A stretch of 64,000 nt of DNA from positions 1-64,000 of the forward strand of contig NZ_NWMV01000017.1 of assembly GCF_002837145.1 (NCBI RefSeq). The letters run 5' to 3'. Below, piece by piece: positions 40,789 to 44,123 of the stretch. This DNA comes from Macromonas nakdongensis. GTDB lineage: Bacteria > Pseudomonadota > Gammaproteobacteria > Burkholderiales > Burkholderiaceae_C. Position 1 is the first letter of the stretch. Each line of letters opens with the position of its first letter. The notes beneath the pieces are model-generated. The model was not told the DNA's origin. It saw only the letters and a program-made list of their open reading frames with translations, and searched no databases. The translations under genes and the position numbers were made by a program.

Positions 40789-41393
40789 AGCGCATCTTTG
40801 ACGTTTGCGGGTCTGCGGTTGCGTTGACACTGCTCAGCTTGCCTTTGCTTTTGCTGGCATGGGCCGTGCGCCTAAAGCTGGGCAGCCCCGTCTTCTTCCG
40901 CCAGGTGCGCCCCGGCCTGCACGGCAAGCCGTTTGAAATGGTGAAGTTCCGCACCATGACCAGCGAACGCGGCCCCGACGGCCAGTTGCTGCCCGACGCC
41001 GTGCGCCTGACGCCGTTTGGTCGCTTTCTGCGCGCCACCAGCCTGGACGAACTGCCCGAGCTGTGGAACGTGCTCAAGGGCGACATGAGCCTGGTGGGCC
41101 CGCGCCCGCTGCTGATGGAATACCTGCCGCTCTACACCCCCGAACAGGCCCGCCGCCACGAGGTGCGCCCCGGCATCACCGGCTGGGCCCAGGTGAACGG
41201 CCGCAACGCCATCAGCTGGGAAGACAAGTTCCAGCTCGACGTGTGGTACGTGGACCACCGCAGCCTTTGGCTGGACATCAAAATCCTGTGGCTCACGGTA
41301 AAGAAAGTGCTGGTACGCGACGGCATCAGCGCGGCTGGCGAGGCCACCATGCCCCGGTTTACCGGCAGCAATACCCAGGAACCACAACCATGA
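40785..41393 (+). CDS. phosphoglycosyl transferase (PglC/WcaJ-type initiating sugar transferase)
   Basis: A 202-residue monotopic phosphoglycosyl transferase. A single N-terminal re-entrant hydrophobic helix (VCGSAVALTLLSLPLLLLAW) precedes the catalytic core with the Asp-Glu dyad in TSLDELPELWNVLKGDMSLVG, the PRPLL loop and RPGITGWAQVNGRN. The short form without extra N-terminal helices is PglC-like. It transfers a sugar phosphate, probably a bacillosamine-type sugar given its neighbours, to undecaprenyl phosphate and so starts the repeat unit. Confidence 0.9.
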   Translation: MKRIFDVCGSAVALTLLSLPLLLLAWAVRLKLGSPVFFRQVRPGLHGKPFEMVKFRTMTSERGPDGQLLPDAVRLTPFGRFLRATSLDELPELWNVLKGDMSLVGPRPLLMEYLPLYTPEQARRHEVRPGITGWAQVNGRNAISWEDKFQLDVWYVDHRSLWLDIKILWLTVKKVLVRDGISAAGEATMPRFTGSNTQEPQP

Positions 41394-42040
41394 AGCAAGT
41401 CGCCATCTTCGGCGCCAGCGGCTTTGGCCGCGAAGTGATGCCACTGGCCCGGCAGCAATGGGCCGCCGGTGGCGAACCGCACCAACTGGTGTTTGTAGAT
41501 GACCACCCCCCCGCCGCCGAATGCAACGGCCACCGCGTGCTCACCTACGCCGAATGGCTGGCCCAGCCCGCCAGCAGCCGGCACATCAACATCGCCATTG
41601 CCAACAGCGCGGTGCGCCAGAGGCTGGTGCAGCGCTGCCTGGCCGACGGGGTGCAGTTCTTCGAGGTGCGCGCCGCCAACGTGGTGCAGCTGGACGACGT
41701 GCAGCTGGGCGAAGGCGCCATCCTCTGCCCTTTCGTCACCCTCACCAGCAACATCCGCATAGGCCAACACTTCCACGCCAACATTTACAGCTATGTGGCA
41801 CACGATTGCGTGATTGGCGACTACGTCACCTTCGCCCCCGGGGTGAAGTGCAATGGCAACGTGGTGGTGGAAGACCACGCCTACATCGGTACCGGCGCCG
41901 TCATCAAACAGGGCCAGCCCGGCGAGCCCCTGGTGATTGGCCGTGGGGCGGTGGTGGGCATGGGCGCCGTTGTCACCAAAAGCGTGCCGCCCGGAGCCAC
42001 GGTGGTGGGCAACCCGGCGCGGCCGATGGTGCTGTCATGA
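41390..42040 (+). CDS. PglD/NeuD-type sugar O/N-acetyltransferase
   Basis: A 216-residue acetyltransferase. The N-terminal Rossmann-like substrate domain starts VAIFGASGFGREVMPLA; the C-terminal part is a left-handed beta-helix with hexapeptide repeats (GEGAILCPFVTLTSNIRIG to VVGMGAVVTKSVPPGATVVG). PglD acetylates the C4 amino group of UDP-4-amino-sugar in bacillosamine synthesis. The ATGA overlap with the phosphoglycosyl transferase gene supports that pathway. The substrate is inferred from context. Confidence 0.88.
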   Translation: MKQVAIFGASGFGREVMPLARQQWAAGGEPHQLVFVDDHPPAAECNGHRVLTYAEWLAQPASSRHINIAIANSAVRQRLVQRCLADGVQFFEVRAANVVQLDDVQLGEGAILCPFVTLTSNIRIGQHFHANIYSYVAHDCVIGDYVTFAPGVKCNGNVVVEDHAYIGTGAVIKQGQPGEPLVIGRGAVVGMGAVVTKSVPPGATVVGNPARPMVLS

Positions 42041-42048
42041 CAGGCTTG

Positions 42049-42057
42049 TGATATAGT
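42049..42057 (+). promoter_or_regulatory. extended -10 promoter ahead of the structured RNA and NYN gene
   Basis: TGATATAGT is a TG-N-TATAGT extended -10 element, 8 bases after the acetyltransferase stop. No good -35 is seen, which extended -10 promoters can tolerate. Transcription would start near 42064, just before the hairpin RNA. Confidence 0.45.
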
Positions 42058-42063
42058 AAAAAG

Positions 42064-42126
42064 TATCCCGCCCTTGGCAGTACGCCGTCCAATCATCCAG
42101 GACGTGCCGAACCCTAGGGCGTTTTT
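42064..42126 (+). ncRNA. short structured RNA with terminator-like end (leader or small RNA candidate)
   Basis: A nested hairpin is visible. CGCCC (42069-42073) pairs with GGGCG (42117-42121), GGCA (42076-42079) with TGCC (42105-42108), and CGTCC (42086-42090) with GGACG (42100-42104) around a 9-base loop. TTTTT follows at 42122-42126. It stands between the acetyltransferase gene and the NYN gene, behind its own promoter and 18 bases before the NYN ATG. It may be an attenuator, a regulatory leader or a free small RNA of about 60 bases. I do not recognise it as a known Rfam family. Confidence 0.45.
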
Positions 42127-42144
42127 GTTGGTTCGGGGAGAAAC

Positions 42145-42855
42145 ATGCCTACGGCGATTTTGATAGACGGTGGGTATTTTGTAAAACGTTTCAGGGCGCT
42201 TGAACCGCACAACGCCTACAACGCAGAACGGGCCGCTGACTGCATTTTTCGGTGGGCTGTTGCCCACCTGTCAGAGAGAGTGGCCTCCAAGCCGGCAGAA
42301 CAACGCTCTCGTCGACGAGAGTTGTACCGCGTCTTTTTTTATGATTGTCCGCCGCTCCAAAAAAAACTACACAACCCCCTTTCAAAAAAGGCGGTCGATT
42401 TCGCCAAATCGGCAGAGGCGGTATTTCGACTTGAATTGCATCAGCGTTTGCTGAAAAAGAGAAAGCTGGCCCTGCGCTTGGGGCACTTGACGAACGATTC
42501 GCCGTGGACCATCAAGCCGACCAAGGTGGCTGAATTGCTGGCAGGGAAGTGCGTTTTTTCTTCTTTGACGGAGGAGGACGTGATGCCGGCTATCCGTCAG
42601 AAAGGGGTAGACATGCGCATTGGTGTGGATGTTGCCTCGCTGGCTTTCAAACGACAGGTGGATCAGATAGTTTTGTTTGCTGGAGACGCAGACTTTGTGC
42701 CCGCAGCCAAGTTGGCCAGGCGAGAGGGCATTGATTTTGTACTTGACCCCATGTGGCGTTCCGTGTCAGACAGCCTGATGGAACACATTGATGGATTGCG
42801 GTCAACCTGCCCCAAGCCAAATGGCAGCAAACCAGCCGAGGTAGGCCCATGCTGA
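42145..42855 (+). CDS. NYN-domain protein (PIN-like nuclease, LabA/DUF88 type)
   Basis: A 236-residue protein with the acidic residues of an NYN/PIN nuclease: Asp8 in ILIDGGYF, Asp162 in RIGVDVASLAF, and Asp181/Asp183 in FAGDADFVPAAKLA. All the usual catalytic aspartates are kept, so RNase or other metal-dependent nuclease activity is plausible. A basic stretch (RLLKKRKLALRLGH) may bind nucleic acid. It has no obvious part in sugar synthesis, yet its last 7 bases overlap the aminotransferase gene. A structured RNA with its own promoter precedes it. Biological role unknown. Confidence 0.8.
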   Translation: MPTAILIDGGYFVKRFRALEPHNAYNAERAADCIFRWAVAHLSERVASKPAEQRSRRRELYRVFFYDCPPLQKKLHNPLSKKAVDFAKSAEAVFRLELHQRLLKKRKLALRLGHLTNDSPWTIKPTKVAELLAGKCVFSSLTEEDVMPAIRQKGVDMRIGVDVASLAFKRQVDQIVLFAGDADFVPAAKLARREGIDFVLDPMWRSVSDSLMEHIDGLRSTCPKPNGSKPAEVGPC

Positions 42856-44123
42856 ACACGCTATTTTCGCCTTGGCCCAACTTCACTGACGAAGAGGCTG
42901 CCGCCGTGCAGCGCGTGCTGCTGAGCAACAAGGTGAACTACTGGACCGGCACCGAATGCCGCGAGTTCGAAAAGGAATTTGCAGCCTGGGCCGGCACTCG
43001 CCATGCCGTGGCGCTGGCCAACGGCACGCTGGCACTGGATGTGGCGCTGAAGGCGTTGAAGATTGGCCCCGGCGATGAGGTGGTGGTCACCCCGCGTACC
43101 TTCATTGCCAGCGTGTCGTGCGTGGTCAATGCCGGCGCCACCCCAGTGTTTGCCGATGTGGATGCCAACAGCGGCAACATCACTGCAAAGACTATTGAGG
43201 CGGTGCTGACCCCCCGCACCAAAGCTGTGATTTGTGTGCACTTGGCCGGTTGGCCCTGCGACATGGACCCGATCATGGCGCTGGCCGAGCAGCATGGCCT
43301 GAAAGTGATTGAGGACTGCGCCCAGGCCCACGGCGCCCGCTACAAGGACCGCAGCGTGGGCAGCATGGGCCACGTGGGGGCCTGGAGCTTTTGCCAAGAC
43401 AAAATCATGACCACCGGCGGCGAAGGCGGCATGGTCACCACCAACGACGACGCCCTGTGGCGTGCCATGTGGAGTTTCAAGGACCACGGTAAGAGCTACG
43501 AGGCCGTGTACGAACGCCAGCACCCGCCCGGTTTCCGCTGGTTGCACGAAAGCTTTGGGACCAACTGGCGCATGCTGGAAATGCAGGCCGCCATCGGCCG
43601 CATCCAGCTGCGCCGCATGACCGAATGGACGGCGCGCCGCCAAGCCCATGCAGCGGCACTGGTGGCTGCCCTGCAGCCATTTGCCGGGGAGTGCGGGCCT
43701 GTGCGCTTGCCGCAACTGGGGTGCCATGGCTGCGCGGCGGGTTGCGGCCCCGGTGGCACCCGGCCCTGCGCCACGGGCTCTGCTGACTGCGTACACGGCC
43801 AGTACAAGTTCTACGCCTACGTGCGCCCGCACAACTTGGACCCCGGCTGGAGCCGCGACCGCATCATCGAAGCCATCAACGCCGAGGGCGTGCCCTGCTA
43901 CCAAGGCAGTTGCAGCGAGGTGTACCTTGAAAAAGCCTTTGACGATACCGGCTGGCGCCCCGCGCAGCGCCTGCCCGTGGCCCGCGAGCTGGGCGAAACC
44001 AGCCTGATGTTTTTGGTACACCCCACTTTGACCGAAGACGAGATCACCCGAACCGTCCACGCCATCACCACGGTGCTGAAGGCGTCGTCCAGCCAGGAAA
44101 CAACTTCACGGGTCCGCTCATGA
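42849..44123 (+). CDS. DegT/DnrJ/EryC1/StrS aminotransferase (PglE/WbpE-like) with Cys-rich insert
   Basis: A 424-residue PLP-dependent sugar aminotransferase. Family motifs: [32 protein letters not shown] and the PLP-lysine segment [17 protein letters not shown]. It would aminate the 4-keto sugar made by the WbpM/PglF-type dehydratase. It is longer than the usual 370-390 residues. Between about residues 292 and 316 there is an unusual insert with five cysteines (starting GCHGCAAGC) just before the conserved YKFYAYVRP strand. The start overlaps the NYN gene by 7 bases and the end overlaps galE by ATGA. Confidence 0.88.

What the first reader, a model, noticed from the sequence alone, without database searches (positions are those of the whole stretch)
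42049..42145. Promoter plus compact hairpin RNA with terminator directly ahead of an NYN nuclease gene
Seen: extended -10 TGATATAGT, then a three-stem nested hairpin (42069-42121) and TTTTT, with only 18 bases from the T-run to the NYN ATG. This layout means most transcripts should end as a roughly 60-base RNA, and the nuclease is made by read-through. A nuclease gene behind its own terminator recalls attenuation, or the RNA antitoxin-terminator-RNase order of type III toxin-antitoxin systems, although no tandem RNA repeats are present. I know of no named RNA family for this element.
Basis: partly seen in the sequence, partly recalled or inferred. Interest (0 to 1): 0.6.

Follow-up and report, generated by a model that had tools for sequence, protein, structure and literature searches.

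The report
Hairpin RNA paired with NYN nuclease
A tiny hairpin RNA that ends in its own stop signal sits directly in front of a predicted RNA-cutting enzyme gene in bacteria, plasmids and phages from many groups, and is sometimes carried without the enzyme, which suggests an undescribed self-poisoning defence module in which the RNA keeps the enzyme in check.

Summary
Confirmed. Window 42065-42128 holds a roughly 60-nt RNA element (extended -10, two-stem hairpin, T-run) 18 bases before an NYN gene (42145-42855). The same element precedes NYN homologues across bacterial phyla, plasmids and prophages: the model finds it at 72 of 80 bacterial loci (43 of them training rows) and 71 of 80 viral loci. 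In a test blind to RNA sequence, 64 of 75 viral leaders hold a hairpin plus T-run, against 6.9 in shuffles. Fourteen of 15 pairs show two-sided changes. The internal loop is AGUA/GA. Rfam has no match. In the window, promoter, RNA and gene form an 806-bp low-GC insert, absent from two of four related loci. No other protein is consistently linked. Model-only scans give 23 strong hits: 15 before NYN, one before a remnant, seven without. Six viral-contig copies also lack NYN, three beside head or packaging genes. Best reading: an RNA-neutralised NYN ribonuclease, a toxin-antitoxin or abortive-infection module that works like ToxIN and AbiF/RCd22 but belongs to neither. Function is inferred; there are no transcript, toxicity or binding data.

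The parts
42049..42057 (+). extended -10 promoter element TGATATAGT (TGn plus TATAGT at 42052-42057); predicted start of transcription near 42064-42065
   Evidence: sequence; -10-like hexamers at this place in 52 of 69 leaders against 18.9 shuffled
42065..42128 (+). hairpin RNA element (model R1 positions 1-65): outer stem 42070-42077/42113-42120, inner stem 42084-42090/42100-42107, terminal loop 42091-42099
   Evidence: R1 77 bits (a training row); two-sided changes at 14 of 15 pairs; RNA-blind test on other loci
42079..42082 (+). AGUA strand of the conserved internal loop (bulged-G / loop-E-like signature; name recalled)
   Evidence: 59, 59, 61 and 59 of 61 distinct rows, taken from the 63 best-scoring of 81
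42109..42110 (+). GA on the opposite strand of the internal loop
   Evidence: 61 of 61 at both positions, same rows
42122..42126 (+). T-run that gives the hairpin the form of an intrinsic terminator
   Evidence: sequence; T in 38 to 54 of 61 rows over five tail columns
42135..42140 (+). possible ribosome-binding site GGGGAG before the NYN start
   Evidence: read by eye in the sequence
42145..42855 (+). NYN-domain gene, predicted ribonuclease, 236 aa; PHROG family phrog_5783 (unknown function)
   Evidence: PF01936 E 5.3e-9; phrog_5783 E 3.7e-90; AlphaFold2 mean pLDDT 92.9, MARF1 NYN Z 16.6; D8, D162, D181, D183 invariant in 46 of 46 aligned proteins
42041..42846 (.). probable inserted cassette (promoter, RNA, NYN) between an acetyltransferase-like gene (41390-42040) and an aminotransferase-like gene (42849-44123); the NYN stop overlaps the aminotransferase start (gene names from sequence reading, not from a family search)
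   Evidence: GC 0.533 against 0.662 and 0.643 in the flanking genes; in L313 and L314 the two genes are adjacent without the insert

Best explanation
This is a mobile two-part module: a self-terminating hairpin RNA of about 60 nt and an NYN-fold endoribonuclease. Shown here: conserved RNA structure, its fixed place between a promoter-like site and the gene, joint change of RNA and protein, insertion of both as one unit in the window, no other constant neighbour among those scanned, and RNA copies without the gene. Inferred: RNA polymerase usually stops at the T-run, so RNA is in excess; occasional read-through makes the nuclease; the RNA binds the nuclease through the AGUA/GA internal loop and blocks it in trans. 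When phage infection or loss of the element upsets RNA supply, the nuclease is freed and cuts cellular or phage RNA, giving abortive infection or addiction. In 6 of 72 leaders a ribosome-site-like word lies inside the 3' stem strand, so there the fold may also repress translation.
For: Structure and association. Model-only scans of 398 Pseudomonadota genomes (window genome included) and 398 genomes of a clostridial genome's phylum give 23 places of at least 34 bits: 15 lead into NYN (at least two of them, the window and L204/L068, are training rows), 1 into an NYN remnant, 7 into no NYN. Twelve of the 13 NYN-less copies (7 genomic, 6 viral) were aligned: each keeps AGUA, and all but L210 keep CGA; the thirteenth, L102, reads ACTA. 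Six of 18 confirmed viral copies lack NYN downstream and anywhere on their contig, three of them beside head or packaging genes. Joint change: Mantel r 0.453, 0 of 2000 permutations as high, 69 loci. Mobile setting: 163 plasmid records, 15 phage records, two lambdoid-type phages with NYN next behind the repressor-like gene, a Thermus plasmid with NYN between a helicase and an N-6 methylase gene. No constant protein partner: the commonest Pfam family is found in 6 of 128 neighbours. Precedent: RCd22/AbiF, same order, read-through, RNA active in trans (PMC12373285, abstract and section 7 read).
Against: No transcript, toxicity, binding or phage data. Of 80 bacterial NYN loci, 4 (L038, L069, L077, L087) show no such hairpin and no strong copy elsewhere in the genome although their NYN is related; 3 more (L080, L081, L086) carry a variant that the model misses, and L042 lacks the gene start. 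AGUA/GA is not universal: coliphage, Proteus phage and sphingomonad leaders have other internal loops. NYN-less copies may be relics: only 3 of 12 have a -10-like site at the usual distance, about the shuffled rate of leaders, and 4 of 12 fold hardly better than shuffles. Neighbours show only a few mobile or defence genes, with no background control. PADLOC holds only weak generic matches.
Confidence: 0.6

Rival explanations
1. Cis-acting leader only: the hairpin is an attenuator and, in some loci, a mask over the ribosome site that NYN or a host factor binds to set NYN expression. The RNA has no function of its own.
For: In 72 leaders the start codon lies -3 to 46 nt from the element, and in 6 a ribosome-site-like word overlaps the 3' stem strand. 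A structured internal loop is a natural protein-binding site. Most neighbours carry no shared family, so many loci may sit among ordinary genes. NYN-less copies may be relics, with promoters uncertain.
Against: Conserved NYN-less copies on phage contigs and in bacterial genomes, five of the latter in genomes where the NYN profile finds nothing. No antiterminator signal. Patchy distribution and carriage on plasmids and phages.
Confidence: 0.2
2. The RNA is an activating or structural cofactor: NYN and hairpin form a ribonucleoprotein in which the RNA positions or activates the nuclease.
For: Tight pairing and joint change of RNA and protein. Invariant basic residues besides the acidic ones (R62, R111, K189, R192).
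Against: No long variable segment that could serve as a guide. RNA copies without the nuclease have no obvious role under this model.
Confidence: 0.1
3. An ordinary intrinsic terminator of the upstream gene that happens to lie before a horizontally acquired NYN gene.
For: The hairpin has terminator form, and short terminator-like hairpins reach about 20-32 bits with R1.
Against: A promoter-like site lies before the hairpin in 52 of 69 leaders. The same fold and internal loop recur behind unrelated upstream genes in many phyla. The whole cassette is absent from two related loci. The terminator-like hits are 30-41 nt long and lack the inner part.
Confidence: 0.03

Closest known systems
AbiF (Abi_2, HEPN) with abiF RNA / RCd22, Rfam RF03085
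   Same: Promoter, small structured RNA ending in a terminator, then a ribonuclease-type toxin gene made by read-through; prophage carriage; for RCd22 the authors report neutralisation in cis and in trans by direct RNA-protein interaction (PMC12373285, abstract and section 7 read). In L091 an abiF-RNA-like match (34.6 bits, below the gathering score 37) lies 6 nt before this hairpin.
   Different: The protein is NYN, not Abi_2/HEPN. No abiF match in the window even at E 10. Here the hairpin itself is the terminator; RCd22 has two abiF motifs plus a separate terminator.
Type III toxin-antitoxin systems (ToxIN, CptIN, TenpIN)
   Same: RNA element first, RNase gene second, one promoter; plasmid and phage setting. 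A phage can carry an RNA mimic of the antitoxin (pseudo-ToxI, PMC3475682, abstract read).
   Different: One hairpin, no tandem repeats; a nested fold explains the covariation without a pseudoknot. NYN fold; the fold of ToxN-type toxins is recalled and was not compared.
NYN-domain proteins with solved structure (MARF1 NYN, Vibrio VPA0982)
   Same: Fold: 5yaa Z 16.6, rmsd 2.5 over 143 residues; 6fdl Z 16.2; 2qip Z 15.8.
   Different: Pfam NYN matches only residues 150-200; about 90 of 236 residues are not aligned to these structures; no PDB chain is found by sequence profile at E 0.01. I recall no RNA partner of this kind for them.

Membership tests
Type III toxin-antitoxin system (ToxIN/CptIN/TenpIN) | antitoxin RNA made of tandem repeats (recalled as defining; 'tandem RNAs' cleaved to single repeats in PMC5086642, passages read) | tested here: not met
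   Tandem Repeats Finder: 0 arrays in 41800-42300; one full element in the leader
Type III toxin-antitoxin system (ToxIN/CptIN/TenpIN) | pseudoknotted RNA (PMC5086642, passages read) | tested here: inconclusive
   a nested hairpin explains the covariation; pseudoknots were not searched for
Type III toxin-antitoxin system (ToxIN/CptIN/TenpIN) | toxin of the ToxN/AbiQ fold | tested here: inconclusive
   Pfam gives NYN only and the best fold matches are NYN; absence from that list is no test
Type III toxin-antitoxin system (ToxIN/CptIN/TenpIN) | RNA neutralises the RNase by direct binding | not testable with these tools
   needs expression and binding assays
AbiF / abiF RNA | abiF RNA motif RF03085 | tested here: not met
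   no Rfam match at E 10 in 41980-42200
AbiF / abiF RNA | Abi_2 (HEPN) protein downstream | tested here: not met
   only PF01936 NYN at E 0.1
NYN domain family PF01936 | Pfam score above the curated cutoff and NYN fold with conserved acidic residues | tested here: met
   37.2 against 24.2 bits; fold; D8, D162, D181, D183 invariant in 46 of 46
PHROG family phrog_5783 | full-length profile match | tested here: met
   E 3.7e-90, residues 2-221 of 236
any of the 4227 Rfam 15 families | score at or above the gathering score | tested here: not met
   window: 0 matches, none at E 10 around the element; 14 homologous loci: only tRNAs
transcription attenuator with antiterminator | conserved alternative pairing that disrupts the terminator | tested here: not met
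   mean longest complement 4.13 against 4.36 shuffled, 72 leaders; limited to exact complements in the next 60 nt

The most novel reading that the evidence does not exclude
The hairpin is a free-standing, trans-acting immunity RNA. Hosts pair it with an NYN ribonuclease toxin, phages and defence islands carry it alone as a decoy that disarms the toxin, and other effectors may adopt it (in L208 it precedes a Schlafen AlbA_2 gene). Its AGUA/GA loop has the bulged-G signature that is also found in the sarcin-ricin loop of 23S rRNA (recalled) and could mimic the toxin's substrate.
Probability: 0.25. Interest if true: 0.9.

Novelty: new variant of a known kind. Interest (0 to 1): 0.77.

Why it matters
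If right, this is a new RNA-protein toxin-antitoxin or abortive-infection class with an RNA family absent from Rfam 15 and, as far as I recall, a new toxin fold for such systems. It is widespread: by record titles Pseudomonadota, Acidobacteria, Bacteroidota, Planctomycetes, Clostridia and others, 163 plasmid records, 134 of them Campylobacter, and 153 stretches of viral contigs. It would give a function to phrog_5783, which in two lambdoid-type phages lies behind the repressor-like gene, where exclusion genes are known to lie (recalled). NYN-less copies beside phage head and packaging genes make the decoy idea directly testable. The unit is about 0.8 kb, so a two-plasmid test in E. coli K-12 is simple.

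Tried and rejected
Antiterminator attenuation: tested, no signal. In the window GAACC and GGTTC could pair across the T-run, but this is not generally shared. Guide RNA: no variable segment seen. A DUF3800 partner for L091, suspected by eye, was not supported by Pfam at E 0.01 or E 10 and is dropped. R1 hits of about 22-32 bits and 30-41 nt (L090, L108-L114, L116-L119, L212, L214, L215) read as ordinary terminators and are not counted; L115 and L213 are full length but below 34 bits and are not counted, nor is a 33.9-bit hit that does precede an NYN copy (G378 contig 40). blastn of three hairpins against isolated phages gave only short chance-like matches, so the NYN-less phage copies rest on IMG/VR contigs, which may be fragments. 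Two further viral pattern scans gave 4 and 12 places; only L166 and L218 score above 50 bits with R1, and both contigs hold NYN. Literature: nine searches of the held open library listed no paper that I could recognise as an NYN-RNA module; in PMC12557735 NYN is a codon pattern (passages). The 2017 NAR paper on 224 candidate RNAs is not held, and subscription papers and preprints are not covered, so an earlier report cannot be excluded. Rows dropped: of 56 hairpins found by script, 44 went into A1; left out were L018 and L019 (mis-called) and L013, L016, L026, L033, L034, L035, L073, L076, L078, L085 (near copies, cut by the script, or long loops). L023 and L027 stayed in although their outer stem is shifted by one column. 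Counts use the 63 best-scoring of 81 rows. For the neighbour scan 128 of 141 listed proteins were given, and 7 of 80 loci were skipped beforehand. The viral-library fold search was not run.

Full report
WHAT IS THERE. The window holds an extended -10 (42049-42057), a hairpin element (42065-42128) with outer stem 42070-42077/42113-42120 and inner stem 42084-42090/42100-42107, a T-run (42122-42126) and, 18 bases on, an NYN gene of 236 codons (42145-42855). The hairpin alone is moderately unusual (z -2.59, 6 of 200 shuffles). Rfam 15 has no match, even at E 10 around the element.

HOMOLOGUES. A scan of genome contigs with the protein kept 80 of 123 relatives; by record titles they are Pseudomonadota, Acidobacteria, Bacteroidota, Phycisphaerales, Gracilinema, Clostridia and others. 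Their leaders show the same architecture. From 56 leaders picked by a script that asked for AGTA, GA and at least 6 of 8 outer pairs, 44 were aligned. Counting on a structure that I wrote down gives two-sided changes at 14 of 15 pairs, 109 two-sided cells, and 0 of 500 shuffles as high. Because the choice used outer-stem pairing, the 93.2% paired cells of the outer stem are partly built in; the inner stem (83.7%, two-sided changes at 6 of 7 pairs) was not used. RNAalifold on its own predicts 12 pairs of the same fold.

TESTS THAT DO NOT LEAN ON THE CHOICE. Leaders selected only by the downstream protein contain a hairpin plus T-run in 64 of 75 distinct viral leaders against 6.9 in dinucleotide shuffles, and in 28 of 35 bacterial leaders outside A1 against 6.0. 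Inner stems inside these elements are longer than in shuffled interiors (means 4.30 against 3.59, and 5.82 against 3.67; longer in 43 of 64 and 22 of 28). Model R1 at E up to 0.1 finds the element at 71 of 80 viral NYN loci, none of them a training row. At E up to 1 it finds it at 72 of 80 bacterial loci, 43 of them training rows; the weakest (L051, L053, L054, E about 0.5) count only because of their position. Of the 8 bacterial misses, L080, L081 and L086 show another hairpin by eye, L042 lacks the gene start, and L038, L069, L077 and L087 show none and have no strong copy elsewhere in the genome. Of the 9 viral misses several show variant hairpins by eye; I did not count them.

ANATOMY. Over 61 distinct rows (from the 63 best-scoring of 81) the internal loop is A-G-U-A (59, 59, 61, 59) opposite G-A (61, 61). 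By recall this is the core of the bulged-G, or loop-E/sarcin-ricin, motif. Escherichia and Proteus phages and sphingomonads have other internal loops in the same frame. A -10-like hexamer starts at -17 to -6 in 52 of 69 leaders (mononucleotide shuffles 18.9), peaking at -14 to -11, which puts the predicted RNA start at the start of the element. In 72 leaders the start codon lies -3 to 46 nt after the element (median 16.5); a ribosome-site-like word lies after it in 41, within the stem in 6, and is not found in 25. No antiterminator-like complement stands out (4.13 against 4.36 shuffled).

PROTEIN. AlphaFold2 gives mean pLDDT 92.9. The best matches are NYN domains: 5yaa Z 16.6, 6fdl Z 16.2, 2qip Z 15.8. 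D8, D162, D181 and D183 are invariant in 46 of 46. RNase activity is inferred from the family. PHROGs has it as phrog_5783, function unknown; PADLOC gives only weak matches (NYN, HEC-09 and, for one of seven proteins, PycC).

MOBILITY. Of 199 genomes (window genome included) 8 have a match, 3 of them weak (E 4e-4 to 9e-4). In the window the insert has GC 0.533 between genes of 0.662 and 0.643. In two of four related loci examined (L313, L314) the two flanking genes are adjacent, so the window's insert is promoter, RNA and NYN and nothing else; in L315 the genes are about 470 bases apart, and L312 has no close acetyltransferase there. The gene is on 163 plasmid records, 134 of them Campylobacter, and in 15 phage records. 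It lies next behind a repressor-like gene in an Escherichia and a Proteus phage, between a regulator and the integrase in a streptococcal phage, and between a helicase and an N-6 methylase gene on a Thermus plasmid. Of 128 neighbouring proteins the commonest Pfam family is phage integrase, 6; type I restriction specificity subunits match 2-3. No background rate was measured.

COPIES WITHOUT NYN. Model-only scans of 398 Pseudomonadota genomes and 398 genomes of a clostridial genome's phylum give 18 and 5 places of at least 34 bits. Downstream there is NYN at 12 and 3, a remnant at 1 (L094), and none at 5 (L091, L093, L095, L097, L102) and 2 (L208, L210). The NYN profile found nothing in the genomes of L091, L095, L102, L208 and L210, only a weak 63-residue match in that of L093, and in that of L097 an NYN copy with a stop or frame break near its start on another contig, where a 33.9-bit copy of the element also lies. 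L091 lies 6 nt behind an abiF-RNA-like match of 34.6 bits, under the gathering score, and L097 beside a series of CRISPR-repeat matches, also under the gathering score. In viral contigs a pattern scan gave 68 places, 18 confirmed by R1 at 39 bits or more: 9 with NYN, 1 with a broken NYN (L168), 2 at contig ends (L157, L121) and 6 without (L128, L153, L132, L180, L164, L183). The six contigs show no NYN at all; they may be fragments. Next to three of them are prohead protease, capsid and portal genes (L200), terminase subunits (L201), and terminase and portal genes (L202). Twelve NYN-less copies were aligned: all keep AGUA, and all but L210 keep CGA; L102 was not aligned and reads ACTA. Eight of the 12 fold clearly better than shuffles (z -2.7 to -4.8); L201, L095, L097 and L210 do not (z -0.8 to -1.4). 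Their promoters are uncertain: 3 of 12 have a -10-like word at the usual distance.

MECHANISM. The anatomy predicts an abundant short RNA and rare read-through to a ribonuclease. RNA copies that survive without the gene, insertion as a unit, and the lack of a protein partner argue for an RNA acting in trans on the nuclease. AbiF/RCd22 in Clostridioides difficile shows experimentally that such an arrangement can be a toxin and an RNA antitoxin (PMC12373285, abstract and section 7); a review describes AbiF with its RNA as a type III toxin and an antitoxin ribonucleoprotein (PMC12737573, passages). Pseudo-ToxI shows that a phage can carry an RNA mimic (PMC3475682, abstract). I therefore give 0.6 to an RNA-neutralised NYN toxin or abortive-infection module, 0.2 to a purely cis leader, 0.1 to an activating cofactor and 0.03 to a plain terminator. 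Joint change of RNA and protein (Mantel r 0.453, 69 loci) fits the first three alike, since closely linked parts are inherited together in any case.

NOVELTY. It works like type III and AbiF modules but fails features of each that could be tested (repeats; abiF motif; Abi_2 protein). Nine searches of the held open library found no description; subscription papers and preprints are not covered.

Noticed in passing
window 41390-44123: The NYN cassette sits between an acetyltransferase-like and an aminotransferase-like gene of what reads as a glycan cluster, and its stop codon overlaps the aminotransferase start, so NYN read-through transcripts may also feed that gene.
   Followed up: partly
L208 675-1563 (minus strand): A strong copy of the RNA (57.8 bits) directly precedes a Schlafen AlbA_2 gene (PF04326, E 1.2e-16), behind what reads by eye as an XRE-type repressor: possibly an exchange of effector.
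   Followed up: partly
L091 1501-1620 (minus strand): The hairpin (71 bits) follows 6 nt behind an abiF-RNA-like match, ahead of a short frame without a Pfam match; neighbouring frames look by eye like type I restriction-modification genes.
   Followed up: partly
L097 and L210: Two NYN-less copies lie beside CRISPR-like arrays (L097 by Rfam matches below the gathering score, L210 by eye) and near type II toxin-antitoxin-like genes (by eye).
   Followed up: no
L262 3940-4002: A viral contig with an NYN pair carries a second copy of the RNA (47 bits) directly ahead of what looks by eye like an integrase gene.
   Followed up: no
Escherichia coli genomes: 274 of 5426 genomes match the phage leader plus NYN region, 73 over at least 80% of it. 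In the spread listing 28 of 40 rows, many O157:H7, hold only the leader and roughly the first half of NYN.
   Followed up: no
L198, L199, L154, L173 upstream of the RNA: Some Clostridia-type copies appear by eye to have the -10 further upstream and a small inverted repeat between it and the hairpin.
   Followed up: no
L200 3226-3528: A small phage-contig protein matching the RNA polymerase alpha C-terminal domain (PF03118, E 2.4e-19) follows an NYN-less RNA copy.
   Followed up: no
L315 (G123): About 470 bases separate the acetyltransferase and aminotransferase genes; whether a remnant of the cassette lies between them was not examined.
   Followed up: no
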